Below, one piece after another: positions 15,415-64,000 of a DNA stretch of 64,000 bases (position 1 is its first letter; every line of letters begins with the position of its first letter). The position numbers and the translations under genes were made by a program. This DNA comes from Phytophthora sp. 'mugwort' (lineage: Eukaryota; Oomycota; Peronosporomycetes; Peronosporales; Peronosporaceae). The stretch covers positions 1,116,001 through 1,180,000 of the forward strand of contig JAUCEF010000011.1 in assembly GCA_033558025.1 (NCBI GenBank), given 5' to 3'. The notes beneath the pieces are model-generated. The model saw only the letters and a program-made list of their open reading frames with translations, did no database searches and had not been told where the DNA came from.

Positions 15415-15653
15415 AGCCTGCACGACTCCCATGGCCTTGTATCTCGATCGCCAGAAGCAGTCTGGAGAGCGGAGTGTAAATTGTTTGTCTCGGTTCGGAC
15501 GCAAAAGCCAATATCAAAACGTAAATACGTGTGTTGCGAGGCCGCATACAGTGAATGGGGAGCGAGACGCTGAAGCGAGGCAGCCGATACGACAGCAGAG
15601 CCGAACAGAAGGCGAAACGAGCGCTGGCGATGCATGGCGTGCGGCAACATAAA

Positions 15654-15757
15654 TCCGAGTGGCCGGAATCGAACCAGCGACCAATTGATTTCCGAGTATA
15701 CTGAAACACAGTATAGAACACTACAGTCAATCGCTCTACCAACTGAGCTACACTCGG
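15654..15757 (-). tRNA. tRNA-Tyr(GTA), copy 1 of 65
   Basis: Decodes UAC and UAU. Acceptor CCGAGTG/CACTCGG with discriminator A73 and a C1-G72 pair, the tyrosine identity pair of eukaryotes. D arm GCTC-AGTTGGTA-GAGC. Anticodon stem ATTGA/TCAAT with loop CTGTAG+A, GTA at 15722-15724. A 31-nt intron (15690-15720) sits after position 37, the canonical site; tRNA-Tyr genes of eukaryotes usually carry one. The intron contains a TATACTG/CAGTATA hairpin. The variable loop is TGGTC and the T arm GCTGG-TTCGATT-CCGGC. A box TAGCTCAGTTGG and B box GGTTCGATTCC match the pol III consensus. CCA is not encoded. The 3' side has only TTT before an A; the next T4 run is about 135 nt further. The unit is truncated at its 3'-trailer side by the array edge, yet the tRNA is intact. 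Confidence 0.97.
15690..15720 (-). other. tRNA-Tyr intron (copy 1, representative)
   Basis: A 31-nt intron between G37 and A38, to be removed by the tRNA splicing endonuclease. Arms TATACTG and CAGTATA flank a 5-nt TGTTT loop. I saw no variant of it among the copies. Confidence 0.85.
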
Positions 15758-15794
15758 TCCTAATTCAACAACCACACCAAAACTCCTCACCTCG

Positions 15795-15813
15795 CTGCGT
15801 AGCTCCTACGCAG
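15795..15813. other. Conserved hairpin in the tRNA 5' flank (copy 1, representative)
   Basis: Perfect 8-bp arms CTGCGTAG and CTACGCAG around a 3-nt CTC loop, 38-56 nt upstream of the tRNA 5' end. It recurs in every unit. Copies 3-5 and 9 have C to T at the first base of the second arm, and copy 30 has a shortened loop. Function unknown. Confidence 0.5.
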
Positions 15814-16403
15814 ACAACCACAACTTCTACAGCATGCACCACGCGGTCACAGCCTACCGGCGCCTCCTCGCTACCGGTTCCACGCATCCGCACGCACTCA
15901 ACTACCGTCCGAGGCTCAGTCGGACCTGGTTCGCTCACCCACTTGTCACGCTCTGTAGCGAACACCCAACGCTTTCCATGGCCCCCGCGACGTCCTCAGC
16001 CGCGCCGCGGACGCACTGACGGGTCCGTCACCGGTCCTCGGTTCCAGAATGTAAGCTAAAGAAAAATCAGTAATCTACGATCTGCGCCTATAGTCGGCGG
16101 AGCTGATAGCGATGGCGGCATTTCGCCGGTGTAGATGAGTGAACGGACAGCCGCACTGCTTCCCAGCCTGCACGACTCCCATGGCCTTGTATCTCGATCG
16201 CCAGAAGCAGTCTGGAGAGCGGAGTGTAAATTGTTTGTCTCGGTTCGGACGCAAAAGCCAATATCAAAACGTAAATACGTGTGTTGCGAGGCCGCATACA
16301 GTGAATGGGGAGCGAGACGCTGAAGCGAGGCAGCCGATACGACAGCAGAGCCGAACAGAAGGCGAAACGAGCGCTGGCGATGCATGGCGTGCGGCAACAT
16401 AAA

Positions 16404-16507
16404 TCCGAGTGGCCGGAATCGAACCAGCGACCAATTGATTTCCGAGTATACTGAAACACAGTATAGAACACTACAGTCAATCGCTCTACCAACTGAGCTA
16501 CACTCGG
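16404..16507 (-). tRNA. tRNA-Tyr(GTA), copy 2
   Basis: Sequence as copy 1. First full unit (16051-16800). Right flank has CGATGTCCTC instead of CGACGTCCTC, a marker shared only with copy 7. Confidence 0.96.
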
Positions 16508-17153
16508 TCCTAATTCAACAACCACACCAAAACTCCTCACCTCGCTGCGTAGCTCCTACGCAGACAACCACAACTTCTACAGCATGCACCACGCGGTCAC
16601 AGCCTACCGGCGCCTCCTCGCTACCGGTTCCACGCATCCGCACGCACTCAACTACCGTCCGAGGCTCAGTCGGACCTGGTTCGCTCACCCACTTGTCACG
16701 CTCTGTAGCGAACACCCAACGCTTTCCATGGCCCCCGCGATGTCCTCAGCCGCGCCGCGGACGCACTGACGGGTCCGTCACCGGTCCTCGGTTCCAGAAT
16801 GTAAGCTAAAGAAAAATCAGTAATCTACGATCTGCGCCTATAGTCGGCGGAGCTGATAGCGATGGCGGCATTTCGCCGGTGTAGATGAGTGAACGGACAG
16901 CCGCACTGCTTCCCAGCCTGCACGACTCCCATGGCCTTGTATCTCGATCGCCAGAAGCAGTCTGGAGAGCGGAGTGTAAATTGTTTGTCTCGGTTCGGAC
17001 GCAAAAGCCAATATCAAAACGTAAATACGTGTGTTGCGAGGCCGCATACAGTGAATGGGGAGCGAGACGCTGAAGCGAGGCAGCCGATACGACAGCAGAG
17101 CCGAACAGAAGGCGAAACGAGCGCTGGCGATGCATGGCGTGCGGCAACATAAA

Positions 17154-17257
17154 TCCGAGTGGCCGGAATCGAACCAGCGACCAATTGATTTCCGAGTATA
17201 CTGAAACACAGTATAGAACACTACAGTCAATCGCTCTACCAACTGAGCTACACTCGG
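17154..17257 (-). tRNA. tRNA-Tyr(GTA), copy 3
   Basis: Right flank has CTCGCC, GCTCTTAC and GGGTCCGCC together, the haplotype of copies 3, 4, 5 and 9. Confidence 0.96.
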
Positions 17258-17903
17258 TCCTAATTCAACAACCACACCAAAACTCCTCGCCTCGCTGCGT
17301 AGCTCTTACGCAGACAACCACAACTTCTACAGCATGCACCACGCGGTCACAGCCTACCGGCGCCTCCTCGCTACCGGTTCCACGCATCCGCACGCACTCA
17401 ACTACCGTCCGAGGCTCAGTCGGACCTGGTTCGCTCACCCACTTGTCACGCTCTGTAGCGAACACCCAACGCTTTCCATGGCCCCCGCGACGTCCTCAGC
17501 CGCGCCGCGGACGCACTGACGGGTCCGCCACCGGTCCTCGGTTCCAGAATGTAAGCTAAAGAAAAATCAGTAATCTACGATCTGCGCCTATAGTCGGCGG
17601 AGCTGATAGCGATGGCGGCATTTCGCCGGTGTAGATGAGTGAACGGACAGCCGCACTGCTTCCCAGCCTGCACGACTCCCATGGCCTTGTATCTCGATCG
17701 CCAGAAGCAGTCTGGAGAGCGGAGTGTAAATTGTTTGTCTCGGTTCGGACGCAAAAGCCAATATCAAAACGTAAATACGTGTGTTGCGAGGCCGCATACA
17801 GTGAATGGGGAGCGAGACGCTGAAGCGAGGCAGCCGATACGACAGCAGAGCCGAACAGAAGGCGAAACGAGCGCTGGCGATGCATGGCGTGCGGCAACAT
17901 AAA

Positions 17904-18007
17904 TCCGAGTGGCCGGAATCGAACCAGCGACCAATTGATTTCCGAGTATACTGAAACACAGTATAGAACACTACAGTCAATCGCTCTACCAACTGAGCTA
18001 CACTCGG
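17904..18007 (-). tRNA. tRNA-Tyr(GTA), copy 4
   Basis: Same haplotype as copy 3 at all markers, so a local unit duplication. Confidence 0.96.
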
Positions 18008-18653
18008 TCCTAATTCAACAACCACACCAAAACTCCTCGCCTCGCTGCGTAGCTCTTACGCAGACAACCACAACTTCTACAGCATGCACCACGCGGTCAC
18101 AGCCTACCGGCGCCTCCTCGCTACCGGTTCCACGCATCCGCACGCACTCAACTACCGTCCGAGGCTCAGTCGGACCTGGTTCGCTCACCCACTTGTCACG
18201 CTCTGTAGCGAACACCCAACGCTTTCCATGGCCCCCGCGACGTCCTCAGCCGCGCCGCGGACGCACTGACGGGTCCGCCACCGGTCCTCGGTTCCAGAAT
18301 GTAAGCTAAAGAAAAATCAGTAATCTACGATCTGCGCCTATAGTCGGCGGAGCTGATAGCGATGGCGGCATTTCGCCGGTGTAGATGAGTGAACGGACAG
18401 CCGCACTGCTTCCCAGCCTGCACGACTCCCATGGCCTTGTATCTCGATCGCCAGAAGCAGTCTGGAGAGCGGAGTGTAAATTGTTTGTCTCGGTTCGGAC
18501 GCAAAAGCCAATATCAAAACGTAAATACGTGTGTTGCGAGGCCGCATACAGTGAATGGGGAGCGAGACGCTGAAGCGAGGCAGCCGATACGACAGCAGAG
18601 CCGAACAGAAGGCGAAACGAGCGCTGGCGATGCATGGCGTGCGGCAACATAAA

Positions 18654-18757
18654 TCCGAGTGGCCGGAATCGAACCAGCGACCAATTGATTTCCGAGTATA
18701 CTGAAACACAGTATAGAACACTACAGTCAATCGCTCTACCAACTGAGCTACACTCGG
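18654..18757 (-). tRNA. tRNA-Tyr(GTA), copy 5
   Basis: Same haplotype as copies 3 and 4. Confidence 0.96.
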
Positions 18758-19403
18758 TCCTAATTCAACAACCACACCAAAACTCCTCGCCTCGCTGCGT
18801 AGCTCTTACGCAGACAACCACAACTTCTACAGCATGCACCACGCGGTCACAGCCTACCGGCGCCTCCTCGCTACCGGTTCCACGCATCCGCACGCACTCA
18901 ACTACCGTCCGAGGCTCAGTCGGACCTGGTTCGCTCACCCACTTGTCACGCTCTGTAGCGAACACCCAACGCTTTCCATGGCCCCCGCGACGTCCTCAGC
19001 CGCGCCGCGGACGCACTGACGGGTCCGCCACCGGTCCTCGGTTCCAGAATGTAAGCTAAAGAAAAATCAGTAATCTACGATCTGCGCCTATAGTCGGCGG
19101 AGCTGATAGCGATGGCGGCATTTCGCCGGTGTAGATGAGTGAACGGACAGCCGCACTGCTTCCCAGCCTGCACGACTCCCATGGCCTTGTATCTCGATCG
19201 CCAGAAGCAGTCTGGAGAGCGGAGTGTAAATTGTTTGTCTCGGTTCGGACGCAAAAGCCAATATCAAAACGTAAATACGTGTGTTGCGAGGCCGCATACA
19301 GTGAATGGGGAGCGAGACGCTGAAGCGAGGCAGCCGATACGACAGCAGAGCCGAACAGAAGGCGAAACGAGCGCTGGTGATGCATGGCGTGCGGCAACAT
19401 AAA

Positions 19404-19507
19404 TCCGAGTGGCCGGAATCGAACCAGCGACCAATTGATTTCCGAGTATACTGAAACACAGTATAGAACACTACAGTCAATCGCTCTACCAACTGAGCTA
19501 CACTCGG
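19404..19507 (-). tRNA. tRNA-Tyr(GTA), copy 6
   Basis: First unit with GGTGATGC on the 3'-trailer side, the form that dominates further right. Right end GGGTCCGCC. Confidence 0.96.
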
Positions 19508-20153
19508 TCCTAATTCAACAACCACACCAAAACTCCTCACCTCGCTGCGTAGCTCCTACGCAGACAACCACAACTTCTACAGCATGCACCACGCGGTCAC
19601 AGCCTACCGGCGCCTCCTCGCTACCGGTTCCACGCATCCGCACGCACTCAACTACCGTCCGAGGCTCAGTCGGACCTGGTTCGCTCACCCACTTGTCACG
19701 CTCTGTAGCGAACACCCAACGCTTTCCATGGCCCCCGCGACGTCCTCAGCCGCGCCGCGGACGCACTGACGGGTCCGCCACCGGTCCTCGGTTCCAGAAT
19801 GTAAGCTAAAGAAAAATCAGTAATCTACGATCTGCGCCTATAGTCGGCGGAGCTGATAGCGATGGCGGCATTTCGCCGGTGTAGATGAGTGAACGGACAG
19901 CCGCACTGCTTCCCAGCCTGCACGACTCCCATGGCCTTGTATCTCGATCGCCAGAAGCAGTCTGGAGAGCGGAGTGTAAATTGTTTGTCTCGGTTCGGAC
20001 GCAAAAGCCAATATCAAAACGTAAATACGTGTGTTGCGAGGCCGCATACAGTGAATGGGGAGCGAGACGCTGAAGCGAGGCAGCCGATACGACAGCAGAG
20101 CCGAACAGAAGGCGAAACGAGCGCTGGCGATGCATGGCGTGCGGCAACATAAA

Positions 20154-20257
20154 TCCGAGTGGCCGGAATCGAACCAGCGACCAATTGATTTCCGAGTATA
20201 CTGAAACACAGTATAGAACACTACAGTCAATCGCTCTACCAACTGAGCTACACTCGG
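20154..20257 (-). tRNA. tRNA-Tyr(GTA), copy 7
   Basis: Shares the CGATGTCCTC marker with copy 2. Confidence 0.96.
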
Positions 20258-20903
20258 TCCTAATTCAACAACCACACCAAAACTCCTCACCTCGCTGCGT
20301 AGCTCCTACGCAGACAACCACAACTTCTACAGCATGCACCACGCGGTCACAGCCTACCGGCGCCTCCTCGCTACCGGTTCCACGCATCCGCACGCACTCA
20401 ACTACCGTCCGAGGCTCAGTCGGACCTGGTTCGCTCACCCACTTGTCACGCTCTGTAGCGAACACCCAACGCTTTCCATGGCCCCCGCGATGTCCTCAGC
20501 CGCGCCGCGGACGCACTGACGGGTCCGTCACCGGTCCTCGGTTCCAGAATGTAAGCTAAAGAAAAATCAGTAATCTACGATCTGCGCCCATAGTCGGCGG
20601 AGCTGATAGCGATGGCGGCATTTCGCCGGTGTAGATGAGTGAACGGACAGCCGCACTGCTTCCAAGCCTGCACGACTCCCATGGCCTTGTATCTCGATCG
20701 CCAGAAGCAGTCTGGAGAGCGGAGTGTAAATTGTTTGTCTCGGTTCGGACGCAAAAGCCAATATCAAAACGTAAATACGTGTGTTGCGAGGCCGCATACA
20801 GTGAGTGGGGAGCGAGACGCTGAAGCGAGGCAGCCGATACGACAGCAGAGCCGAACAGAAGGCGAAACGAGCGCTGGCGATGCATGGCGTGCGGCAACAT
20901 AAA

Positions 20904-21007
20904 TCCGAGTGGCCGGAATCGAACCAGCGACCAATTGATTTCCGAGTATACTGAAACACAGTATAGAACACTACAGTCAATCGCTCTACCAACTGAGCTA
21001 CACTCGG
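20904..21007 (-). tRNA. tRNA-Tyr(GTA), copy 8
   Basis: 3'-trailer side has GCCCATAG, TTCCAAGCC and GTGAGTGGGG, three differences from the majority unit. Confidence 0.96.
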
Positions 21008-21653
21008 TCCTAATTCAACAACCACACCAAAACTCCTCACCTCGCTGCGTAGCTCCTACGCAGACAACCACAACTTCTACAGCATGCACCACGCGGTCAC
21101 AGCCTACCGGCGCCTCCTCGCTACCGGTTCCACGCATCCGCACGCACTCAACTACCGTCCGAGGCTCAGTCGGACCTGGTTCGCTCACCCACTTGTCACG
21201 CTCTGTAGCGAACACCCAACGCTTTCCATGGCCCCCGCGACGTCCTCAGCCGCGCCGCGGACGCACTGACGGGTCCGTCACCGGTCCTCGGTTCCAGAAT
21301 GTAAGCTAAAGAAAAATCAGTAATCTACGATCTGCGCCTATAGTCGGCGGAGCTGATAGCGATGGCGGCATTTCGCCGGTGTAGATGAGTGAACGGACAG
21401 CCGCACTGCTTCCCAGCCTGCACGACTCCCATGGCCTTGTATCTCGATCGCCAGAAGCAGTCTGGAGAGCGGAGTGTAAATTGTTTGTCTCGGTTCGGAC
21501 GCAAAAGCCAATATCAAAACGTAAATACGTGTGTTGCGAGGCCGCATACAGTGAATGGGGAGCGAGACGCTGAAGCGAGGCAGCCGATACGACAGCAGAG
21601 CCGAACAGAAGGCGAAACGAGCGCTGGCGATGCATGGCGTGCGGCAACATAAA

Positions 21654-21757
21654 TCCGAGTGGCCGGAATCGAACCAGCGACCAATTGATTTCCGAGTATA
21701 CTGAAACACAGTATAGAACACTACAGTCAATCGCTCTACCAACTGAGCTACACTCGG
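21654..21757 (-). tRNA. tRNA-Tyr(GTA), copy 9
   Basis: Right flank is the copy 3-5 haplotype, here separated from that block by three units. Confidence 0.96.
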
Positions 21758-22403
21758 TCCTAATTCAACAACCACACCAAAACTCCTCGCCTCGCTGCGT
21801 AGCTCTTACGCAGACAACCACAACTTCTACAGCATGCACCACGCGGTCACAGCCTACCGGCGCCTCCTCGCTACCGGTTCCACGCATCCGCACGCACTCA
21901 ACTACCGTCCGAGGCTCAGTCGGACCTGGTTCGCTCACCCACTTGTCACGCTCTGTAGCGAACACCCAACGCTTTCCATGGCCCCCGCGACGTCCTCAGC
22001 CGCGCCGCGGACGCACTGACGGGTCCGCCACCGGTCCTCGGTTCCAGAATGTAAGCTAAAGAAAAATCAGTAATCTACGATCTGCGCCCATAGTCGGCGG
22101 AGCTGATAGCGATGGCGGCATTTCGCCGGTGTAGATGAGTGAACGGACAGCCGCACTGCTTTCCAGCCTGCACGACTCCCATGGCCTTGTATCTCGATCG
22201 CCAGAAGCAGTCTGGAGAGCGGAGTGTAAATTGTTTGTCTCGGTTCGGACGCAAAAGCCAATATCAAAACGTAAATACGTGTGTTGCGAGGCCGCATACA
22301 GTGAATGGGGAGCGAGACGCTGAAGCGAGGCAGCCGATACGACAGCAGAGCCGAACAGAAGGCGAAACGAGCGCTGGCGATGCATGGCGTGCGGCAACAT
22401 AAA

Positions 22404-22507
22404 TCCGAGTGGCCGGAATCGAACCAGCGACCAATTGATTTCCGAGTATACTGAAACACAGTATAGAACACTACAGTCAATCGCTCTACCAACTGAGCTA
22501 CACTCGG
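22404..22507 (-). tRNA. tRNA-Tyr(GTA), copy 10
   Basis: 3'-trailer side has GCCCATAG and GCTTTCCAG. Right end AGGTCCGTC. Confidence 0.96.
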
Positions 22508-23153
22508 TCCTAATTCAACAACCACACCAAAACTCCTCACCTCGCTGCGTAGCTCCTACGCAGACAACCACAACTTCTACAGCATGCACCACGCGGTCAC
22601 AGCCTACCGGCGCCTCCTCGCTACCGGTTCCACGCATCCGCACGCACTCAACTACCGTCCGAGGCTCAGTCGGACCTGGTTCGCTCACCCACTTGTCACG
22701 CTCTGTAGCGAACACCCAACGCTTTCCATGGCCCCCGCGACGTCCTCAGCCGCGCCGCGGACGCACTGACAGGTCCGTCACCGGTCCTCGGTTCCAGAAT
22801 GTAAGCTAAAGAAAAATCAGTAATCTACGATCTGCGCCTATAGTCGGCGGAGCTGATAGCGATGGCGGCATTTCGCCGGTGTAGATGAGTGAACGGACAG
22901 CCGCACTGCTTCCCAGCCTGCACGACTCCCATGGCCTTGTATCTCGATCGCCAGAAGCAGTCTGGAGAGCGGAGTGTAAATTGTTTGTCTCGGTTCGGAC
23001 GCAAAAGCCAATATCAAAACGTAAATACGTGTGTTGCGAGGCCGCATACAGTGAATGGGGAGCGAGACGCTGAAGCGAGGCAGCCGATACGACAGCAGAG
23101 CCGAACAGAAGGCGAAACGAGCGCTGGCGATGCATGGCGTGCGGCAACATAAA

Positions 23154-23257
23154 TCCGAGTGGCCGGAATCGAACCAGCGACCAATTGATTTCCGAGTATA
23201 CTGAAACACAGTATAGAACACTACAGTCAATCGCTCTACCAACTGAGCTACACTCGG
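23154..23257 (-). tRNA. tRNA-Tyr(GTA), copy 11
   Basis: Right end AGGTCCGTC, with GGCGATGC on the trailer side. Confidence 0.96.
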
Positions 23258-23903
23258 TCCTAATTCAACAACCACACCAAAACTCCTCACCTCGCTGCGT
23301 AGCTCCTACGCAGACAACCACAACTTCTACAGCATGCACCACGCGGTCACAGCCTACCGGCGCCTCCTCGCTACCGGTTCCACGCATCCGCACGCACTCA
23401 ACTACCGTCCGAGGCTCAGTCGGACCTGGTTCGCTCACCCACTTGTCACGCTCTGTAGCGAACACCCAACGCTTTCCATGGCCCCCGCGACGTCCTCAGC
23501 CGCGCCGCGGACGCACTGACAGGTCCGTCACCGGTCCTCGGTTCCAGAATGTAAGCTAAAGAAAAATCAGTAATCTACGATCTGCGCCTATAGTCGGCGG
23601 AGCTGATAGCGATGGCGGCATTTCGCCGGTGTAGATGAGTGAACGGACAGCCGCACTGCTTCCCAGCCTGCACGACTCCCATGGCCTTGTATCTCGATCG
23701 CCAGAAGCAGTCTGGAGAGCGGAGTGTAAATTGTTTGTCTCGGTTCGGACGCAAAAGCCAATATCAAAACGTAAATACGTGTGTTGCGAGGCCGCATACA
23801 GTGAATGGGGAGCGAGACGCTGAAGCGAGGCAGCCGATACGACAGCAGAGCCGAACAGAAGGCGAAACGAGCGCTGGTGATGCATGGCGTGCGGCAACAT
23901 AAA

Positions 23904-24007
23904 TCCGAGTGGCCGGAATCGAACCAGCGACCAATTGATTTCCGAGTATACTGAAACACAGTATAGAACACTACAGTCAATCGCTCTACCAACTGAGCTA
24001 CACTCGG
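23904..24007 (-). tRNA. tRNA-Tyr(GTA), copy 12
   Basis: Right end AGGTCCGTC, with GGTGATGC on the trailer side. Confidence 0.96.
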
Positions 24008-24653
24008 TCCTAATTCAACAACCACACCAAAACTCCTCACCTCGCTGCGTAGCTCCTACGCAGACAACCACAACTTCTACAGCATGCACCACGCGGTCAC
24101 AGCCTACCGGCGCCTCCTCGCTACCGGTTCCACGCATCCGCACGCACTCAACTACCGTCCGAGGCTCAGTCGGACCTGGTTCGCTCACCCACTTGTCACG
24201 CTCTGTAGCGAACACCCAACGCTTTCCATGGCCCCCGCGACGTCCTCAGCCGCGCCGCGGACGCACTGACAGGTCCGTCACCGGTCCTCGGTTCCAGAAT
24301 GTAAGCTAAAGAAAAATCAGTAATCTACGATCTGCGCCTATAGTCGGCGGAGCTGATAGCGATGGCGGCATTTCGCCGGTGTAGATGAGTGAACGGACAG
24401 CCGCACTGCTTCCCAGCCTGCACGACTCCCATGGCCTTGTATCTCGATCGCCAGAAGCAGTCTGGAGAGCGGAGTGTAAATTGTTTGTCTCGGTTCGGAC
24501 GCAAAAGCCAATATCAAAACGTAAATACGTGTGTTGCGAGGCCGCATACAGTGAATGGGGAGCGAGACGCTGAAGCGAGGCAGCCGATACGACAGCAGAG
24601 CCGAACAGAAGGCGAAACGAGCGCTGGTGATGCATGGCGTGCGGCAACATAAA

Positions 24654-24757
24654 TCCGAGTGGCCGGAATCGAACCAGCGACCAATTGATTTCCGAGTATA
24701 CTGAAACACAGTATAGAACACTACAGTCAATCGCTCTACCAACTGAGCTACACTCGG
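24654..24757 (-). tRNA. tRNA-Tyr(GTA), copy 13
   Basis: GGTGATGC with right end GGGTCCGCC; copies 13-15 are alike. Confidence 0.96.
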
Positions 24758-25403
24758 TCCTAATTCAACAACCACACCAAAACTCCTCACCTCGCTGCGT
24801 AGCTCCTACGCAGACAACCACAACTTCTACAGCATGCACCACGCGGTCACAGCCTACCGGCGCCTCCTCGCTACCGGTTCCACGCATCCGCACGCACTCA
24901 ACTACCGTCCGAGGCTCAGTCGGACCTGGTTCGCTCACCCACTTGTCACGCTCTGTAGCGAACACCCAACGCTTTCCATGGCCCCCGCGACGTCCTCAGC
25001 CGCGCCGCGGACGCACTGACGGGTCCGCCACCGGTCCTCGGTTCCAGAATGTAAGCTAAAGAAAAATCAGTAATCTACGATCTGCGCCTATAGTCGGCGG
25101 AGCTGATAGCGATGGCGGCATTTCGCCGGTGTAGATGAGTGAACGGACAGCCGCACTGCTTCCCAGCCTGCACGACTCCCATGGCCTTGTATCTCGATCG
25201 CCAGAAGCAGTCTGGAGAGCGGAGTGTAAATTGTTTGTCTCGGTTCGGACGCAAAAGCCAATATCAAAACGTAAATACGTGTGTTGCGAGGCCGCATACA
25301 GTGAATGGGGAGCGAGACGCTGAAGCGAGGCAGCCGATACGACAGCAGAGCCGAACAGAAGGCGAAACGAGCGCTGGTGATGCATGGCGTGCGGCAACAT
25401 AAA

Positions 25404-25507
25404 TCCGAGTGGCCGGAATCGAACCAGCGACCAATTGATTTCCGAGTATACTGAAACACAGTATAGAACACTACAGTCAATCGCTCTACCAACTGAGCTA
25501 CACTCGG
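25404..25507 (-). tRNA. tRNA-Tyr(GTA), copy 14
   Basis: Identical to copy 13 at the markers followed. Confidence 0.96.
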
Positions 25508-26153
25508 TCCTAATTCAACAACCACACCAAAACTCCTCACCTCGCTGCGTAGCTCCTACGCAGACAACCACAACTTCTACAGCATGCACCACGCGGTCAC
25601 AGCCTACCGGCGCCTCCTCGCTACCGGTTCCACGCATCCGCACGCACTCAACTACCGTCCGAGGCTCAGTCGGACCTGGTTCGCTCACCCACTTGTCACG
25701 CTCTGTAGCGAACACCCAACGCTTTCCATGGCCCCCGCGACGTCCTCAGCCGCGCCGCGGACGCACTGACGGGTCCGCCACCGGTCCTCGGTTCCAGAAT
25801 GTAAGCTAAAGAAAAATCAGTAATCTACGATCTGCGCCTATAGTCGGCGGAGCTGATAGCGATGGCGGCATTTCGCCGGTGTAGATGAGTGAACGGACAG
25901 CCGCACTGCTTCCCAGCCTGCACGACTCCCATGGCCTTGTATCTCGATCGCCAGAAGCAGTCTGGAGAGCGGAGTGTAAATTGTTTGTCTCGGTTCGGAC
26001 GCAAAAGCCAATATCAAAACGTAAATACGTGTGTTGCGAGGCCGCATACAGTGAATGGGGAGCGAGACGCTGAAGCGAGGCAGCCGATACGACAGCAGAG
26101 CCGAACAGAAGGCGAAACGAGCGCTGGTGATGCATGGCGTGCGGCAACATAAA

Positions 26154-26257
26154 TCCGAGTGGCCGGAATCGAACCAGCGACCAATTGATTTCCGAGTATA
26201 CTGAAACACAGTATAGAACACTACAGTCAATCGCTCTACCAACTGAGCTACACTCGG
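26154..26257 (-). tRNA. tRNA-Tyr(GTA), copy 15
   Basis: Identical to copies 13 and 14 at the markers followed. Confidence 0.96.
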
Positions 26258-53237: not shown

Positions 53238-53883
53238 TCCTAATTCAACAACCACACCAAAACTCCTCACCTCGCTGCGTAGCTCCTACGCAGACAACCA
53301 CAACTTCTACAGCATGCACCACGCGGTCACAGCCTACCGGCGCCTCCTCGCTACCGGTTCCACGCATCCGCACGCACTCAACTACCGTCCGAGGCTCAGT
53401 CGGACCTGGTTCGCTCACCCACTTGTCACGCTCTGTAGCGAACACCCAACGCTTTCCATGGCCCCCGCGACGTCCTCAGCCGCGCCGCGGACGCACTGAC
53501 GGGTCCGTCACCGGTCCTCGGTTCCAGAATGTAAGCTAAAGAAAAATCAGTAATCTACGATCTGCGCCTATAGTCGGCGGAGCTGATAGCGATGGCGGCA
53601 TTTCGCCGGTGTAGATGAGTGAACGGACAGCCGCACTGCTTCCCAGCCTGCACGACTCCCATGGCCTTGTATCTCGATCGCCAGAAGCAGTCTGGAGAGC
53701 GGAGTGTAAATTGTTTGTCTCGGTTCGGACGCAAAAGCCAATATCAAAACGTAAATACGTGTGTTGCGAGGCCGCATACAGTGAATGGGGAGCGAGACGC
53801 TGAAGCGAGGCAGCCGATACGACAGCAGAGCCGAACAGAAGGCGAAACGAGCGCTGGTGATGCATGGCGTGCGGCAACATAAA

Positions 53884-53987
53884 TCCGAGTGGCCGGAATC
53901 GAACCAGCGACCAATTGATTTCCGAGTATACTGAAACACAGTATAGAACACTACAGTCAATCGCTCTACCAACTGAGCTACACTCGG
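53884..53987 (-). tRNA. tRNA-Tyr(GTA), copy 52
   Basis: Majority haplotype. Confidence 0.96.
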
Positions 53988-54633
53988 TCCTAATTCAACA
54001 ACCACACCAAAACTCCTCACCTCGCTGCGTAGCTCCTACGCAGACAACCACAACTTCTACAGCATGCACCACGCGGTCACAGCCTACCGGCGCCTCCTCG
54101 CTACCGGTTCCACGCATCCGCACGCACTCAACTACCGTCCGAGGCTCAGTCGGACCTGGTTCGCTCACCCACTTGTCACGCTCTGTAGCGAACACCCAAC
54201 GCTTTCCATGGCCCCCGCGACGTCCTCAGCCGCGCCGCGGACGCACTGACGGGTCCGTCACCGGTCCTCGGTTCCAGAATGTAAGCTAAAGAAAAATCAG
54301 TAATCTACGATCTGCGCCTATAGTCGGCGGAGCTGATAGCGATGGCGGCATTTCGCCGGTGTAGATGAGTGAACGGACAGCCGCACTGCTTCCCAGCCTG
54401 CACGACTCCCATGGCCTTGTATCTCGATCGCCAGAAGCAGTCTGGAGAGCGGAGTGTAAATTGTTTGTCTCGGTTCGGACGCAAAAGCCAATATCAAAAC
54501 GTAAATACGTGTGTTGCGAGGCCGCATACAGTGAATGGGGAGCGAGACGCTGAAGCGAGGCAGCCGATACGACAGCAGAGCCGAACAGAAGGCGAAACGA
54601 GCGCTGGTGATGCATGGCGTGCGGCAACATAAA

Positions 54634-54737
54634 TCCGAGTGGCCGGAATCGAACCAGCGACCAATTGATTTCCGAGTATACTGAAACACAGTATAGAACA
54701 CTACAGTCAATCGCTCTACCAACTGAGCTACACTCGG
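54634..54737 (-). tRNA. tRNA-Tyr(GTA), copy 53
   Basis: Majority haplotype. Confidence 0.96.
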
Positions 54738-55383
54738 TCCTAATTCAACAACCACACCAAAACTCCTCACCTCGCTGCGTAGCTCCTACGCAGACAACCA
54801 CAACTTCTACAGCATGCACCACGCGGTCACAGCCTACCGGCGCCTCCTCGCTACCGGTTCCACGCATCCGCACGCACTCAACTACCGTCCGAGGCTCAGT
54901 CGGACCTGGTTCGCTCACCCACTTGTCACGCTCTGTAGCGAACACCCAACGCTTTCCATGGCCCCCGCGACGTCCTCAGCCGCGCCGCGGACGCACTGAC
55001 GGGTCCGTCACCGGTCCTCGGTTCCAGAATGTAAGCTAAAGAAAAATCAGTAATCTACGATCTGCGCCTATAGTCGGCGGAGCTGATAGCGATGGCGGCA
55101 TTTCGCCGGTGTAGATGAGTGAACGGACAGCCGCACTGCTTCCCAGCCTGCACGACTCCCATGGCCTTGTATCTCGATCGCCAGAAGCAGTCTGGAGAGC
55201 GGAGTGTAAATTGTTTGTCTCGGTTCGGACGCAAAAGCCAATATCAAAACGTAAATACGTGTGTTGCGAGGCCGCATACAGTGAATGGGGAGCGAGACGC
55301 TGAAGCGAGGCAGCCGATACGACAGCAGAGCCGAACAGAAGGCGAAACGAGCGCTGGTGATGCATGGCGTGCGGCAACATAAA

Positions 55384-55487
55384 TCCGAGTGGCCGGAATC
55401 GAACCAGCGACCAATTGATTTCCGAGTATACTGAAACACAGTATAGAACACTACAGTCAATCGCTCTACCAACTGAGCTACACTCGG
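55384..55487 (-). tRNA. tRNA-Tyr(GTA), copy 54
   Basis: Majority haplotype. Confidence 0.96.
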
Positions 55488-56133
55488 TCCTAATTCAACA
55501 ACCACACCAAAACTCCTCACCTCGCTGCGTAGCTCCTACGCAGACAACCACAACTTCTACAGCATGCACCACGCGGTCACAGCCTACCGGCGCCTCCTCG
55601 CTACCGGTTCCACGCATCCGCACGCACTCAACTACCGTCCGAGGCTCAGTCGGACCTGGTTCGCTCACCCACTTGTCACGCTCTGTAGCGAACACCCAAC
55701 GCTTTCCATGGCCCCCGCGACGTCCTCAGCCGCGCCGCGGACGCACTGACGGGTCCGTCACCGGTCCTCGGTTCCAGAATGTAAGCTAAAGAAAAATCAG
55801 TAATCTACGATCTGCGCCTATAGTCGGCGGAGCTGATAGCGATGGCGGCATTTCGCCGGTGTAGATGAGTGAACGGACAGCCGCACTGCTTCCCAGCCTG
55901 CACGACTCCCATGGCCTTGTATCTCGATCGCCAGAAGCAGTCTGGAGAGCGGAGTGTAAATTGTTTGTCTCGGTTCGGACGCAAAAGCCAATATCAAAAC
56001 GTAAATACGTGTGTTGCGAGGCCGCATACAGTGAATGGGGAGCGAGACGCTGAAGCGAGGCAGCCGATACGACAGCAGAGCCGAACAGAAGGCGAAACGA
56101 GCGCTGGTGATGCATGGCGTGCGGCAACATAAA

Positions 56134-56237
56134 TCCGAGTGGCCGGAATCGAACCAGCAACCAATTGATTTCCGAGTATACTGAAACACAGTATAGAACA
56201 CTACAGTCAATCGCTCTACCAACTGAGCTACACTCGG
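56134..56237 (-). tRNA. tRNA-Tyr(GTA), copy 55, C48T variant
   Basis: Same C48 to T change as copy 36 (plus-strand A at 56159), at an offset of 14,244 bp. Confidence 0.95.
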
Positions 56238-56883
56238 TCCTAATTCAACAACCACACCAAAACTCCTCACCTCGCTGCGTAGCTCCTACGCAGACAACCA
56301 CAACTTCTACAGCATGCACCACGCGGTCACAGCCTACCGGCGCCTCCTCGCTACCGGTTCCACGCATCCGCACGCACTCAACTACCGTCCGAGGCTCAGT
56401 CGGACCTGGTTCGCTCACCCACTTGTCACGCTCTGTAGCGAACACCCAACGCTTTCCATGGCCCCCGCGACGTCCTCAGCCGCGCCGCGGACGCACTGAC
56501 GGGTCCGTCACCGGTCCTCGGTTCCAGAATGTAAGCTAAAGAAAAATCAGTAATCTACGATCTGCGCCTATAGTCGGCGGAGCTGATAGCGATGGCGGCA
56601 TTTCGCCGGTGTAGATGAGTGAACGGACAGCCGCACTGCTTCCCAGCCTGCACGACTCCCATGGCCTTGTATCTCGATCGCCAGAAGCAGTCTGGAGAGC
56701 GGAGTGTAAATTGTTTGTCTCGGTTCGGACGCAAAAGCCAATATCAAAACGTAAATACGTGTGTTGCGAGGCCGCATACAGTGAATGGGGAGCGAGACGC
56801 TGAAGCGAGGCAGCCGATACGACAGCAGAGCCGAACAGAAGGCGAAACGAGCGCTGGTGATGCATGGCGTGCGGCAACATAAA

Positions 56884-56987
56884 TCCGAGTGGCCGGAATC
56901 GAACCAGCGACCAATTGATTTCCGAGTATACTGAAACACAGTATAGAACACTACAGTCAATCGCTCTACCAACTGAGCTACACTCGG
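56884..56987 (-). tRNA. tRNA-Tyr(GTA), copy 56
   Basis: Majority haplotype. Confidence 0.96.
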
Positions 56988-57633
56988 TCCTAATTCAACA
57001 ACCACACCAAAACTCCTCACCTCGCTGCGTAGCTCCTACGCAGACAACCACAACTTCTACAGCATGCACCACGCGGTCACAGCCTACCGGCGCCTCCTCG
57101 CTACCGGTTCCACGCATCCGCACGCACTCAACTACCGTCCGAGGCTCAGTCGGACCTGGTTCGCTCACCCACTTGTCACGCTCTGTAGCGAACACCCAAC
57201 GCTTTCCATGGCCCCCGCGACGTCCTCAGCCGCGCCGCGGACGCACTGACGGGTCCGTCACCGGTCCTCGGTTCCAGAATGTAAGCTAAAGAAAAATCAG
57301 TAATCTACGATCTGCGCCTATAGTCGGTGGAGCTGATAGCGATGGCGGCATTTCGCCGGTGTAGATGAGTGAACGGACAGCCGCACTGCTTCCCAGCCTG
57401 CACGACTCCCATGGCCTTGTATCTCGATCGCCAGAAGCAGTCTGGAGAGCGGAGTGTAAATTGTTTGTCTCGGTTCGGACGCAAAAGCCAATATCAAAAC
57501 GTAAATACGTGTGTTGCGAGGCCGCATACAGTGAATGGGGAGCGAGACGCTGAAGCGAGGCAGCCGATACGACAGCAGAGCCGAACAGAAGGCGAAACGA
57601 GCGCTGGCGATGCATGGCGTGCGGCAACATAAA

Positions 57634-57737
57634 TCCGAGTGGCCGGAATCGAACCAGCGACCAATTGATTTCCGAGTATACTGAAACACAGTATAGAACA
57701 CTACAGTCAATCGCTCTACCAACTGAGCTACACTCGG
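57634..57737 (-). tRNA. tRNA-Tyr(GTA), copy 57
   Basis: Carries the copy 38 combination, including GTCGGTGGAG. Confidence 0.96.
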
Positions 57738-58383
57738 TCCTAATTCAACAACCACACCAAAACTCCTCACCTCGCTGCGTAGCTCCTACGCAGACAACCA
57801 CAACTTCTACAGCATGCACCACGCGGTCACAGCCTACCGGCGCCTCCTCGCTACCGGTTCCACGCATCCGCACGCACTCAACTACCGTCCGAGGCTCAGT
57901 CGGACCTGGTTCGCTCACCCACTTGTCACGCTCTGTAGCGAACACCCAACGCTTTCCATGGCCCCCGCGACGTCCTCAGCCGCGCCGCGGACGCACTGAC
58001 GGGTCCGCCACCGGTCCTCGGTTCCAGAATGTAAGCTAAAGAAAAATCAGTAATCTACGATCTGCGCCTATAGTCGGCGGAGCTGATAGCGATGGCGGCA
58101 TTTCGCCGGTGTAGATGAGTGAACGGACAGCCGCACTGCTTCCCAGCCTGCACGACTCCCATGGCCTTGTATCTCGATCGCCAGAAGCAGTCTGGAGAGC
58201 GGAGTGTAAATTGTTTGTCTCGGTTCGGACGCAAAAGCCAATATCAAAACGTAAATACGTGTGTTGCGAGGCCGCATACAGTGAATGGGGAGCGAGACGC
58301 TGAAGCGAGGCAGCCGATACGACAGCAGAGCCGAACAGAAGGCGAAACGAGCGCTGGTGATGCATGGCGTGCGGCAACATAAA

Positions 58384-58487
58384 TCCGAGTGGCCGGAATC
58401 GAACCAGCGACCAATTGATTTCCGAGTATACTGAAACACAGTATAGAACACTACAGTCAATCGCTCTACCAACTGAGCTACACTCGG
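58384..58487 (-). tRNA. tRNA-Tyr(GTA), copy 58
   Basis: Majority haplotype. Confidence 0.96.
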
Positions 58488-59133
58488 TCCTAATTCAACA
58501 ACCACACCAAAACTCCTCACCTCGCTGCGTAGCTCCTACGCAGACAACCACAACTTCTACAGCATGCACCACGCGGTCACAGCCTACCGGCGCCTCCTCG
58601 CTACCGGTTCCACGCATCCGCACGCACTCAACTACCGTCCGAGGCTCAGTCGGACCTGGTTCGCTCACCCACTTGTCACGCTCTGTAGCGAACACCCAAC
58701 GCTTTCCATGGCCCCCGCGACGTCCTCAGCCGCGCCGCGGACGCACTGACGGGTCCGTCACCGGTCCTCGGTTCCAGAATGTAAGCTAAAGAAAAATCAG
58801 TAATCTACGATCTGCGCCTATAGTCGGCGGAGCTGATAGCGATGGCGGCATTTCGCCGGTGTAGATGAGTGAACGGACAGCCGCACTGCTTCCCAGCCTG
58901 CACGACTCCCATGGCCTTGTATCTCGATCGCCAGAAGCAGTCTGGAGAGCGGAGTGTAAATTGTTTGTCTCGGTTCGGACGCAAAAGCCAATATCAAAAC
59001 GTAAATACGTGTGTTGCGAGGCCGCATACAGTGAATGGGGAGTGAGACGCTGAAGCGAGGCAGCCGATACGACAGCAGAGCCGAACAGAAGGCGAAACGA
59101 GCGCTGGTGATGCATGGCGTGCGGCAACATAAA

Positions 59134-59237
59134 TCCGAGTGGCCGGAATCGAACCAGCGACCAATTGATTTCCGAGTATACTGAAACACAGTATAGAACA
59201 CTACAGTCAATCGCTCTACCAACTGAGCTACACTCGG
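59134..59237 (-). tRNA. tRNA-Tyr(GTA), copy 59
   Basis: Carries the copy 40 marker GGGGAGTGAGAC. Confidence 0.96.
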
Positions 59238-59883
59238 TCCTAATTCAACAACCACACCAAAACTCCTCACCTCGCTGCGTAGCTCCTACGCAGACAACCA
59301 CAACTTCTACAGCATGCACCACGCGGTCACAGCCTACCGGCGCCTCCTCGCTACCGGTTCCACGCATCCGCACGCACTCAACTACCGTCCGAGGCTCAGT
59401 CGGACCTGGTTCGCTCACCCACTTGTCACGCTCTGTAGCGAACACCCAACGCTTTCCATGGCCCCCGCGACGTCCTCAGCCGCGCCGCGGACGCACTGAC
59501 GGGTCCGTCACCGGTCCTCGGTTCCAGAATGTAAGCTAAAGAAAAATCAGTAATCTACGATCTGCGCCTATAGTCGGCGGAGCTGATAGCGATGGCGGCA
59601 TTTCGCCGGTGTAGATGAGTGAACGGACAGCCGCACTGCTTCCCAGCCTGCACGACTCCCATGGCCTTGTATCTCGATCGCCAGAAGCAGTCTGGAGAGC
59701 GGAGTGTAAATTGTTTGTCTCGGTTCGGACGCAAAAGCCAATATCAAAACGTAAATACGTGTGTTGCGAGGCCGCATACAGTGAGTGGGGAGCGAGACGC
59801 TGAAGCGAGGCAGCCGATACGACAGCAGAGCCGAACAGAAGGCGAAACGAGCGCTGGTGATGCATGGCGTGCGGCAACATAAA

Positions 59884-59987
59884 TCCGAGTGGCCGGAATC
59901 GAACCAGCGACCAATTGATTTCCGAGTATACTGAAACACAGTATAGAACACTACAGTCAATCGCTCTACCAACTGAGCTACACTCGG
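59884..59987 (-). tRNA. tRNA-Tyr(GTA), copy 60
   Basis: GTGAGTGGGG on the trailer side, GGGTCCGTC on the right; no exact counterpart near copy 41. Confidence 0.96.
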
Positions 59988-60633
59988 TCCTAATTCAACA
60001 ACCACACCAAAACTCCTCACCTCGCTGCGTAGCTCCTACGCAGACAACCACAACTTCTACAGCATGCACCACGCGGTCACAGCCTACCGGCGCCTCCTCG
60101 CTACCGGTTCCACGCATCCGCACGCACTCAACTACCGTCCGAGGCTCAGTCGGACCTGGTTCGCTCACCCACTTGTCACGCTCTGTAGCGAACACCCAAC
60201 GCTTTCCATGGCCCCCGCGACGTCCTCAGCCGCGCCGCGGACGCACTGACGGGTCCGTCACCGGTCCTCGGTTCCAGAATGTAAGCTAAAGAAAAATCAG
60301 TAATCTACGATCTGCGCCTATAGTCGGCGGAGCTGATAGCGATGGCGGCATTTCGCCGGTGTAGATGAGTGAACGGACAGCCGCACTGCTTCCCAGCCTG
60401 CACGACTCCCATGGCCTTGTATCTCGATCGCCAGAAGCAGTCTGGAGAGCGGAGTGTAAATTGTTTGTCTCGGTTCGGACGCAAAAGCCAATATCAAAAC
60501 GTAAATACGTGTGTTGCGAGGCCGCATACAGTGAGTGGGGAGCGAGACGCTGAAGCGAGGCAGCCGATACGACAGCAGAGCCGAACAGAAGGCGAAACGA
60601 GCGCTGGTGATGCATGGCGTGCGGCAACATAAA

Positions 60634-60737
60634 TCCGAGTGGCCGGAATCGAACCAGCGACCAATTGATTTCCGAGTATACTGAAACACAGTATAGAACA
60701 CTACAGTCAATCGCTCTACCAACTGAGCTACACTCGG
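60634..60737 (-). tRNA. tRNA-Tyr(GTA), copy 61
   Basis: GTGAGTGGGG with CCGTCCAAGG and GGGTCCGCC, as copy 46. Confidence 0.96.
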
Positions 60738-61383
60738 TCCTAATTCAACAACCACACCAAAACTCCTCACCTCGCTGCGTAGCTCCTACGCAGACAACCA
60801 CAACTTCTACAGCATGCACCACGCGGTCACAGCCTACCGGCGCCTCCTCGCTACCGGTTCCACGCATCCGCACGCACTCAACTACCGTCCAAGGCTCAGT
60901 CGGACCTGGTTCGCTCACCCACTTGTCACGCTCTGTAGCGAACACCCAACGCTTTCCATGGCCCCCGCGACGTCCTCAGCCGCGCCGCGGACGCACTGAC
61001 GGGTCCGCCACCGGTCCTCGGTTCCAGAATGTAAGCTAAAGAAAAATCAGTAATCTACGATCTGCGCCTATAGTCGGCGGAGCTGATAGCGATGACGGCA
61101 TTTCGCCGGTGTAGATGAGTGAACGGACAGCCGCACTGCTTCCCAGCCTGCACGACTCCCATGGCCTTGTATCTCGATCGCCAGAAGCAGTCTGGAGAGC
61201 GGAGTGTAAATTGTTTGTCTCGGTTCGGACGCAAAAGCCAATATCAAAACGTAAATACGTGTGTTGCGAGGCCGCATACAGTGAATGGGGAGCGAGACGC
61301 TGAAGCGAGGCAGCCGATACGACAGCAGAGCCGAACAGAAGGCGAAACGAGCGCTGGTGATGCATGGCGTGCGGCAACATAAA

Positions 61384-61487
61384 TCCGAGTGGCCGGAATC
61401 GAACCAGCGACCAATTGATTTCCGAGTATACTGAAACACAGTATAGAACACTACAGTCAATCGCTCTACCAACTGAGCTACACTCGG
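61384..61487 (-). tRNA. tRNA-Tyr(GTA), copy 62
   Basis: GATGACGGC as copy 42, but with CCGTCCAAGG on the right, which copy 42 lacks. Confidence 0.96.
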
Positions 61488-62133
61488 TCCTAATTCAACA
61501 ACCACACCAAAACTCCTCACCTCGCTGCGTAGCTCCTACGCAGACAACCACAACTTCTACAGCATGCACCACGCGGTCACAGCCTACCGGCGCCTCCTCG
61601 CTACCGGTTCCACGCATCCGCACGCACTCAACTACCGTCCAAGGCTCAGTCGGACCTGGTTCGCTCACCCACTTGTCACGCTCTGTAGCGAACACCCAAC
61701 GCTTTCCATGGCCCCCGCGACGTCCTCAGCCGCGCCGCGGACGCACTGACGGGTCCGCCACCGGTCCTCGGTTCCAGAATGTAAGCTAAAGAAAAATCAG
61801 TAATCTACGATCTGCGCCTATAGTCGGCGGAGCTGATAGCGATGGCGGCATTTCGCCGGTGTAGATGAGTGAACGGACAGCCGCACTGCTTTCCAGCCTG
61901 CACGACTCCCATGGCCTTGTATCTCGATCGCCAGAAGCAGTCTGGAGAGCGGAGTGTAAATTGTTTGTCTCGGTTCGGACGCAAAAGCCAATATCAAAAC
62001 GTAAATACGTGTGTTGCGAGGCCGCATACAGTGAATGGGGAGCGAGACGCTGAAGCGAGGCAGCCGATACGACAGCAGAGCCGAACAGAAGGCGAAACGA
62101 GCGCTGGCGATGCATGGCGTGCGGCAACATAAA

Positions 62134-62237
62134 TCCGAGTGGCCGGAATCGAACCAGCGACCAATTGATTTCCGAGTATACTGAAACACAGTATAGAACA
62201 CTACAGTCAATCGCTCTACCAACTGAGCTACACTCGG
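62134..62237 (-). tRNA. tRNA-Tyr(GTA), copy 63
   Basis: Carries all three markers of copy 43. Confidence 0.96.
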
Positions 62238-62883
62238 TCCTAATTCAACAACCACACCAAAACTCCTCACCTCGCTGCGTAGCTCCTACGCAGACAACCA
62301 CAACTTCTACAGCATGCACCACGCGGTCACAGCCTACCGGCGCCTCCTCGCTACCGGTTCCACGCATCCGCACGCACTCAACTACCGTCCGAGGCTCAGT
62401 CGGACCTGGTTCGCTCACCCACTTGTCACGCTCTGTAGCGAACACCCAACGCTTTCCATGGCCCCCGCGACGTCCTCAGCCGCGCCGCGGACGCACTGAC
62501 AGGTCCGTCACCGGTCCTCGGTTCCAGAATGTAAGCTAAAGAAAAATCAGTAATCTACGATCTGCGCCTATAGTCGGCGGAGCTGATAGCGATGACGGCA
62601 TTTCGCCGGTGTAGATGAGTGAACGGACAGCCGCACTGCTTCCCAGCCTGCACGACTCCCATGGCCTTGTATCTCGATCGCCAGAAGCAGTCTGGAGAGC
62701 GGAGTGTAAATTGTTTGTCTCGGTTCGGACGCAAAAGCCAATATCAAAACGTAAATACGTGTGTTGCGAGGCCGCATACAGTGAATGGGGAGCGAGACGC
62801 TGAAGCGAGGCAGCCGATACGACAGCAGAGCCGAACAGAAGGCGAAACGAGCGCTGGTGATGCATGGCGTGCGGCAACATAAA

Positions 62884-62987
62884 TCCGAGTGGCCGGAATC
62901 GAACCAGCGACCAATTGATTTCCGAGTATACTGAAACACAGTATAGAACACTACAGTCAATCGCTCTACCAACTGAGCTACACTCGG
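62884..62987 (-). tRNA. tRNA-Tyr(GTA), copy 64
   Basis: Carries the copy 44 combination. Confidence 0.96.
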
Positions 62988-63633
62988 TCCTAATTCAACA
63001 ACCACACCAAAACTCCTCACCTCGCTGCGTAGCTCCTACGCAGACAACCACAACTTCTACAGCATGCACCACGCGGTCACAGCCTACCGGCGCCTCCTCG
63101 CTACCGGTTCCACGCATCCGCACGCACTCAACTACCGTCCGAGGCTCAGTCGGACCTGGTTCGCTCACCCACTTGTCACGCTCTGTAGCGAACACCCAAC
63201 GCTTTCCATGGCCCCCGCGACGTCCTCAGCCGCGCCGCGGACGCACTGACGGGTCCGTCACCGGTCCTCGGTTCCAGAATGTAAGCTAAAGAAAAATCAG
63301 TAATCTACGATCTGCGCCTATAGTCGGCGGAGCTGATAGCGATGGCGGCATTTCGCCGGTGTAGATGAGTGAACGGACAGCCGCACTGCTTCCCAGCCTG
63401 CACGACTCCCATGGCCTTGTATCTCGATCGCCAGAAGCAGTCTGGAGAGCGGAGTGTAAATTGTTTGTCTCGGTTCGGACGCAAAAGCCAATATCAAAAC
63501 GTAAATACGTGTGTTGCGAGGCCGCATACAGTGAATGGGGAGCGAGACGCTGAAGCGAGGCAGCCGATACGACAGCAGAGCCGAACAGAAGGCGAAACGA
63601 GCGCTGGTGATGCATGGCGTGCGGCAACATAAA

Positions 63634-63737
63634 TCCGAGTGGCCGGAATCGAACCAGCGACCAATTGATTTCCGAGTATACTGAAACACAGTATAGAACA
63701 CTACAGTCAATCGCTCTACCAACTGAGCTACACTCGG
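63634..63737 (-). tRNA. tRNA-Tyr(GTA), copy 65
   Basis: Last copy in the window. The tRNA is complete; its unit is cut by the window end at 64000. Confidence 0.96.
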
Positions 63738-64000
63738 TCCTAATTCAACAACCACACCAAAACTCCTCACCTCGCTGCGTAGCTCCTACGCAGACAACCA
63801 CAACTTCTACAGCATGCACCACGCGGTCACAGCCTACCGGCGCCTCCTCGCTACCGGTTCCACGCATCCGCACGCACTCAACTACCGTCCGAGGCTCAGT
63901 CGGACCTGGTTCGCTCACCCACTTGTCACGCTCTGTAGCGAACACCCAACGCTTTCCATGGCCCCCGCGACGTCCTCAGCCGCGCCGCGGACGCACTGAC

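What the first reader, a model, noticed from the sequence alone, without database searches (positions are those of the whole stretch)
15415..64000. Satellite-like array of at least 65 intron-containing tRNA-Tyr(GTA) genes in a 750-bp unit
Seen: 65 near-identical tRNA-Tyr genes, all on one strand, one per 750-bp unit, filling 48.6 kb and running off the window. Known: tandem tRNA arrays exist in Entamoeba, Arabidopsis has a Tyr-Tyr-Ser cluster, and Xenopus has a tDNA repeat. I know of no such single-tRNA array in an oomycete. Inference: far more Tyr genes than decoding should need. It may act as a structural or chromatin element (insulator, pol III focus, recombination site), a source of tRNA fragments, or a passive amplification.
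Basis: partly seen in the sequence, partly recalled or inferred. Interest (0 to 1): 0.9.

Follow-up and report, generated by a model that had tools for sequence, protein, structure and literature searches.

The report
Tandem array of tyrosine tRNA genes
A Phytophthora-like water mould carries its recognisable tyrosine tRNA genes as 87 near-identical copies in one 65-kb tandem block; the block is real and looks like working genes, but such blocks are already known in this group of organisms.

Summary
The window has 65 tRNA-Tyr(GTA) genes on one strand, one per ~750-bp unit; on the contig the array runs on to 87 genes (86 full units and one cut unit, 65 kb), each read as tRNA-Tyr with a 31-nt intron. 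In this same genome I met four more arrays: Phe (80 exact copies), Cys (195 hits, 99 of 100 listed in one array), Asn (100 places listed) and Gly-TCC/Gly-CCC (27 genes in 20 kb). What this case adds: the two papers disagree (tRNA gene arrays, or 'SINE-like'). Here the array holds every tRNA-Tyr gene my searches recognised; the one outside relative is a degenerate orphon just under Rfam's cut-off, and two spacer probes hit only the array. That favours a genuine, probably sole-source gene array, kept uniform by unequal exchange, with signs of ~15-kb block duplications. The surplus of copies is most likely a by-product of that exchange. Expression and true copy number could not be tested. New member of a known kind.

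The parts
15417..64000 (-). tandem array of ~750-bp units, each with one tRNA-Tyr(GTA) gene on the minus strand; 65 genes in the window; continues beyond the window to about 80479 (87 genes in all)
   Evidence: unit starts and spacing; ARAGORN with introns 87 of 87
15654..15757 (-). first tRNA-Tyr(GTA) gene, 104 nt: exons of 37 and 36 nt around a 31-nt intron
   Evidence: Rfam RF00005 60.5 bits; exon and intron lengths
15690..15720 (-). 31-nt intron of the first gene, between tRNA positions 37 and 38
   Evidence: the same intron letters in 87 of 87 genes
63634..63737 (-). last tRNA-Tyr gene inside the window (65th)
10485..10880 (+). retrotransposon remains in the left flank (reverse transcriptase, RVT_2); border context, not part of the array
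   Evidence: Pfam RVT_2, E 2.7e-27

Best explanation
It is a monomeric tandem array of genuine nuclear tRNA-Tyr(GUA) genes and probably the only nuclear source of this tRNA. Shown: complete genes with intron, nearly identical, with identical near flanks; no other Tyr gene recognised in the assembly except a degenerate orphon; the spacer probes occur nowhere else. Inferred: each unit is an independent pol III gene whose precursor is spliced to a 73-nt tRNA. Unequal crossing-over and gene conversion between misaligned units keep them alike and make the copy number drift; blocks of about 19-21 units appear to have been duplicated. Selection needs some intact copies, while the excess is mostly a neutral by-product of exchange, as in ribosomal DNA.
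For: 87 of 87 genes complete with intron; 84 of 87 identical, 30 nt before and 20 nt after identical in 87 of 87. Exact 5'-half pattern: 87 hits in the genome, each in the array. Loose A-box-to-anticodon pattern: 88 hits, one outside and without Rfam match. Two 30-base spacer probes with up to 3 mismatches: 87 hits each, each in the array. Rare unit types recur at lags 19-21 (14 matches, permutation mean 2.6, p 5e-5) and 40 (5 against 0.6, p 2e-4). Other tRNA families of this genome are arrayed too, as in P. infestans, where read depth supported the counts.
Against: No expression or pol III data. A strongly diverged Tyr gene would be missed, and 173 of 342 hits of the 3-mismatch search were neither listed nor identified. 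Lower variation in the gene than in the spacer is not significant (1 of 104 against 26 of 646 columns, p 0.16), so purifying selection is not shown. The lags 19-21 and 40 were picked after a scan; over all lags 1-59 the best single lag is 1 with 7 matches (equal to the 99.9% point of the permuted maximum), lag 19 has 6. Only TTTA, no run of four T, stands directly behind the gene; the first T4 is 131-134 nt off.
Confidence: 0.82

Rival explanations
1. SINE-like element: the unit is a tRNA-derived repeat annotated as a tRNA gene and expanded like a transposon, as proposed for the Peronospora effusa clusters.
For: Same overall look as the P. effusa clusters (717-bp units, near-identical tRNA part) for which those authors propose the name SINE-like. 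The orphon on C10 and a 151-bp spacer match on C5 show that pieces of the unit do occur elsewhere.
Against: Gene part and two spacer probes occur only in the array; complete gene with intron in 87 of 87; longest A run in a unit is 5 and the longest T run 3, so no A tail; no other recognised Tyr gene to do the cell's work. Target-site duplications were not tested.
Confidence: 0.06
2. Structural or chromatin element: the array is kept long because it organises the chromosome (insulator, pol III focus), beyond its coding role.
For: Copy number looks out of step with need, by analogy with P. infestans where it correlates only modestly with codon use; the P. infestans authors raise nuclear or chromatin organisation as a possibility.
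Against: Array lies inside its contig (1.13-1.20 of 3.84 Mb), so a chromosome-end role is not suggested.
Confidence: 0.07
3. Assembly artefact: the number of units is inflated, the real locus holds few.
For: Long tandem arrays are hard to assemble; PMC9584435 reports tRNA gene numbers differing by about one-quarter between P. infestans assemblies.
Against: Both borders lie in one contig and 29 unit types are laid out in a non-random order. In P. infestans read depth agreed with assembly counts.
Confidence: 0.05

Closest known systems
Tandem tRNA gene arrays of Phytophthora infestans (PMC9584435; abstract, section 9 and found passages read)
   Same: Monomeric arrays of one tRNA gene, near-identical units of some hundred bases, whole family on one chromosome (for example 271 tRNA-Cys(GCA) genes in 513-nt units), dimeric arrays with different anticodons of one amino acid; unequal crossing-over proposed.
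   Different: Different tRNA, unit length and sequence; the text I read does not name a Tyr array (figure S2A, which may show it, is not held).
tRNA / 'SINE-like' clusters of Peronospora effusa (PMC11540230; section 9 and found passages read)
   Same: 33-39 clusters per isolate with nearly all annotated tRNA genes; 717-bp unit in the largest described, tRNA part identical; subgroups of recently expanded units.
   Different: Those authors class them as SINE-like and report inversions and spacer frames with an RXLR motif in some clusters. Here there is one orientation, and none of 7 frames of 50 or more residues in a unit has R-x-L-R.
Arabidopsis tRNA-Ser/Tyr/Tyr (SYY) cluster (PMC12308677; abstract and section 7 read)
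   Same: Tandem amplification of intron-bearing tRNA-Tyr genes with a uniform core.
   Different: Unit has Ser-Tyr-Tyr; 16 dispersed Tyr genes exist besides 54 clustered ones; the cluster is silent in most tissues. No dispersed set was recognised here.
tRNA arrays of Entamoeba (PMC2652664; abstract and section 'Function' read)
   Same: tRNA genes as tandem arrays; no link of gene number to codon use reported.
   Different: Units with up to five tRNA genes, in E. histolytica with short tandem repeats between genes; a telomere role has been proposed there.
Xenopus tDNA repeat (recalled; no call)
   Same: Tandem repeat that carries tRNA genes.
   Different: As recalled, a unit of about 3 kb with several different tRNA genes.

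Membership tests
Peronosporaceae monomeric tRNA gene array | One complete tRNA gene per unit of some hundred bases, units in one orientation | tested here: met
   87 genes, one per ~750-bp unit, one strand
Peronosporaceae monomeric tRNA gene array | Units nearly identical | tested here: met
   99.6% mean pairwise identity over 86 units; 84 of 87 genes identical
Peronosporaceae monomeric tRNA gene array | Family confined to one chromosome | tested here: met
   87 of 88 hits of the loose pattern in the array, the other without Rfam match; degenerate orphon on C10
[quoted passage not shown]
   Neighbours share rare types (7 against 1.1, p 2.5e-4), but not significantly from unit 21 on (3 against 0.9, p 0.056); distinct types: 12 in the first 20 units, 9 in units 21-40, 11 in the last 20
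Peronosporaceae monomeric tRNA gene array | Host is a peronosporacean oomycete | tested here: met
   Flanking peptidase 89% to P. nicotianae, 88% to P. ramorum, then other Peronosporaceae; species not proved
SINE | Copies dispersed through the genome | tested here: not met
   Gene pattern and two spacer probes: 87 hits each, in the array only; three partial matches of the unit elsewhere
SINE | A-rich or simple-repeat tail | tested here: not met
   Longest A run 5, longest T run 3 in a unit; TRF finds no repeat of period up to 500 in the window
SINE | Target-site duplications | not tested
   -
Arabidopsis SYY-type cluster | Ser-Tyr-Tyr unit | tested here: not met
   Rfam finds one tRNA per unit, four in four units
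Arabidopsis SYY-type cluster | Transcriptionally silent in most tissues | not testable with these tools
   No expression data
Entamoeba tRNA array | Several tRNA genes per unit, short tandem repeats between genes (E. histolytica) | tested here: not met
   One gene per unit; TRF 0 rows

The most novel reading that the evidence does not exclude
tRNA families in this genome are run like ribosomal DNA: each is a sole-source array far above need, of which a changing fraction is active, and the array doubles as a fixed pol III and chromosome-organising locus. The Tyr array would then be a single-locus handle on the whole cellular supply of one tRNA.
Probability: 0.15. Interest if true: 0.6.

Novelty: new member of a known kind. 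Interest (0 to 1): 0.3.

Why it matters
Two published readings of such oomycete clusters conflict: real tRNA genes or SINE-like repeats. A Tyr array that holds every Tyr gene recognised in the assembly, each with an intact intron, is a good test case and argues for real genes. It also makes one locus the likely supply of a whole tRNA species, and its unit types record the history of exchange.

Tried and rejected
Whole-genome tRNA count: the RF00005 search scored 63 of 9,329 candidates, each on a contig between C15 and C115. Two of these contigs, sampled at 10 kb each, are mitochondrial by Rfam, and four loci printed in part show the same tRNA cluster; so no nuclear count came out. The B-box pattern gave 1,994 hits against 134 for its control, only the first places listed; the fraction in arrays was not computed.

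The Tyr pattern with up to 3 mismatches gave 342 hits, 100 listed. 87 are the array, 80 exact Phe copies, one a Phe-like place on C2, one the C10 orphon; 173 remain unlisted. The Asn genes differ from that pattern at exactly 3 places and lie on the same strand, so they are the likely rest, but this was not proved. One search is the cleaner test.

The 750-bp unit as a DNA query did not report the array itself, because that tool skips very common words; it could therefore not show that the unit is not dispersed. The probes were run for that reason.

A chromosome-end role is not suggested (array inside the contig). A tRNA-like stretch at 81416 in the right flank has a B box by eye but no Rfam match up to E 1. 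The two right-flank pieces found no Pfam family, so calling them Copia remains rests on recalled motifs. A missing T4 terminator as a special feature: rejected, as the Cys and Gly-CCC genes have no T4 close behind either.

Full report
Observation. The window contains 65 tRNA-Tyr(GTA) genes on the minus strand, one per unit, the first at 15654-15757. The next 100 kb of the contig show that the array ends at about 80479 in window numbering: 87 unit starts, 86 full units and a last one cut after 594 bases. Of the 64 spacings in the window 55 are 750 bp and 9 are 747-749. With introns allowed, ARAGORN reads 87 of 87 as tRNA-Tyr(gta) with a 31-nt intron; the default run finds none.

Gene anatomy. 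The 104-nt gene consists of exons of 37 and 36 nt around a 31-nt intron and gives a 73-nt tRNA, which ARAGORN also reads as tRNA-Tyr. It starts with C, pairs it with G72, and has A73 and anticodon GUA; that these are identity features of eukaryotic tRNA-Tyr, and that an intron is usual in such genes, is recalled. 84 of 87 genes are identical and 3 share one change, which I place in the variable loop; the 30 nt before and the 20 nt after are the same in 87 of 87. Directly behind the gene stands TTTA; the first run of four T is 131-134 nt away. In the samples looked at, Phe and Gly-TCC genes have a T4 close behind, Cys has TTCTT and Gly-CCC none close, so this is not peculiar to Tyr.

Place and owner. 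The genome has 86,260,535 bases in 154 contigs. A flanking S28 peptidase is 89% like one of P. nicotianae and 88% like one of P. ramorum, and two sampled small contigs are mitochondrial with an mt-tmRNA: a Phytophthora or close relative, species not proved. The left flank has retrotransposon remains (RVT_2, E 2.7e-27) and no ATG frame of 200 or more residues; on the right the first frame of 250 or more residues begins some 12 kb beyond the array.

Are there other Tyr genes? The exact 5'-half pattern has 87 hits in the genome, each in the array. A looser pattern from A-box core to anticodon has 88: the array plus C9:853885, where Rfam finds no tRNA up to E 1. One relative lies at C10:1191779-1192235, 75% like the unit, spacer included. 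As a tRNA it scores 27.6 bits against a cut-off of 29; its 5' half is 95%, intron 81% and 3' half 69% like the array gene, the gene as a whole 82% against 71-76% for its flanks. I take it for a decayed orphon; that its gene part is somewhat better kept than its flanks could also mean that it worked for a while, or is weakly functional. So the array is probably the sole nuclear source. Limits: a strongly diverged gene would be missed, withheld stretches read N, and 173 of 342 hits of the 3-mismatch search were not listed and are only probably Asn genes.

Not dispersed. Two 30-base spacer probes, up to 3 mismatches allowed, have 87 hits each, each in the array. The unit as a query matched three other places in part, on C10, C5 and C14.

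How it evolves. 27 of 750 columns vary, 1 of them in the gene (p 0.16, not significant); mean pairwise identity is 99.6%. Rare unit types recur at lags 19-21 (14 matches against a permutation mean of 2.6, p 5e-5) and 40 (5 against 0.6, p 2e-4), and neighbours share types (7 against 1.1, p 2.5e-4). From unit 21 on the long lags stay strong (p 5e-5 each) but neighbour sharing is not significant (p 0.056). These lags were picked after a scan; against the maximum over lags 1-59 the best single lag (lag 1, 7 matches) equals the 99.9% point and lag 19 has 6, with a permuted mean maximum of 3.5. I read this as duplication of blocks of about 15 kb plus local exchange, that is unequal crossing-over; the p values are indicative only.

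It is not alone. In the same genome: Phe(GAA), 80 exact copies on the same contig from 1720389 to 1772567, mostly 556-557-bp units (anticodon called on 4 genes of a 3-kb sample); Cys(GCA), 195 hits, of 100 listed 99 on C13 in 553-555-bp units and one on C7 (5 genes called in a 3-kb sample); a run on C5 with GTT in the anticodon place (Asn by the code table, no tRNA program run), 100 places listed of 515 hits of that pattern, steps 726-746 bp after a first gap; Gly-TCC and Gly-CCC mostly alternating on C1, 27 genes in 20 kb. Single copies outside also occur: C7 for Cys, C2 for a Phe-like one and one Gly-TCC about 8 kb before the Gly array. I met five families, not all; Cys was looked for because of the P. 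infestans paper, and Phe and Asn turned up in searches that favour large families.

What is known. In P. infestans 7,519 tRNA genes on chromosomes and 3,537 on other contigs were predicted, about 64% in arrays of one gene, two thirds of families on a single chromosome; 271 Cys(GCA) genes form an array of 513-nt units; counts agreed with read depth and correlate only modestly with codon use. Its authors invoke unequal crossing-over and raise chromatin organisation. In Peronospora effusa 33-39 clusters hold about 99.6% of more than 6,000 annotated tRNA genes per isolate; those authors prefer 'SINE-like'. The listings of searches with Phytophthora and tyrosine tRNA or tRNA-Tyr (15 of 40 papers listed, 6 of 6) showed no paper on a nuclear Tyr array of an oomycete by title or abstract start. 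Hence a new member of a known kind.

What the case decides. Against the SINE-like reading for this array stand its single locus, the lack of an A tail, the complete spliceable gene, and the lack of another gene to do the work. Unlike the Arabidopsis SYY cluster, which has 16 dispersed Tyr genes beside it and is silent in most tissues (abstract), this array cannot be wholly silent if the searches are complete. That is inference; no expression data were at hand. The surplus of copies is best seen as drift under unequal exchange; a structural role remains possible and untested.

Noticed in passing
C11:1224478-1225236 (-) and C11:1227052-1227810 (+) (window numbering 108478-109236 and 111052-111810, beyond the window): Two copies of a 252-residue frame with a tRNA-binding domain (Pfam tRNA_bind, E 2.8e-18), inverted to each other and identical over 759 of 759 bases, about 28 kb right of the tRNA array.
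   Followed up: partly
C11:1720389-1772567: tRNA-Phe(GAA) array of 80 exact copies on the same contig, opposite strand, with a gap of about 8 kb before the last copy.
   Followed up: partly
C5:885872-966646: Run of genes with GTT in the anticodon place (Asn by the code table), steps mostly 732 and 745-746 bp, as if two unit lengths were mixed.
   Followed up: no
C1:3740001-3760000: Array of tRNA-Gly(TCC) and tRNA-Gly(CCC), mostly alternating, 27 genes in 20 kb.
   Followed up: partly
C1:2440618/2443298/2446798 and C4:2944143/2946828/2950337: Two places with GGTTCGAGTCC copies about 6.2 kb apart and an opposite-strand GGTTCGATTCC between; perhaps a dispersed element whose ends carry a B-box-like motif.
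   Followed up: no
contigs C15 and C19 (sampled): Small contigs are mitochondrial, with an mt-tmRNA at 83.8 bits; many small contigs share the same tRNA hit, so the assembly seems to hold many mitochondrial fragments.
   Followed up: partly
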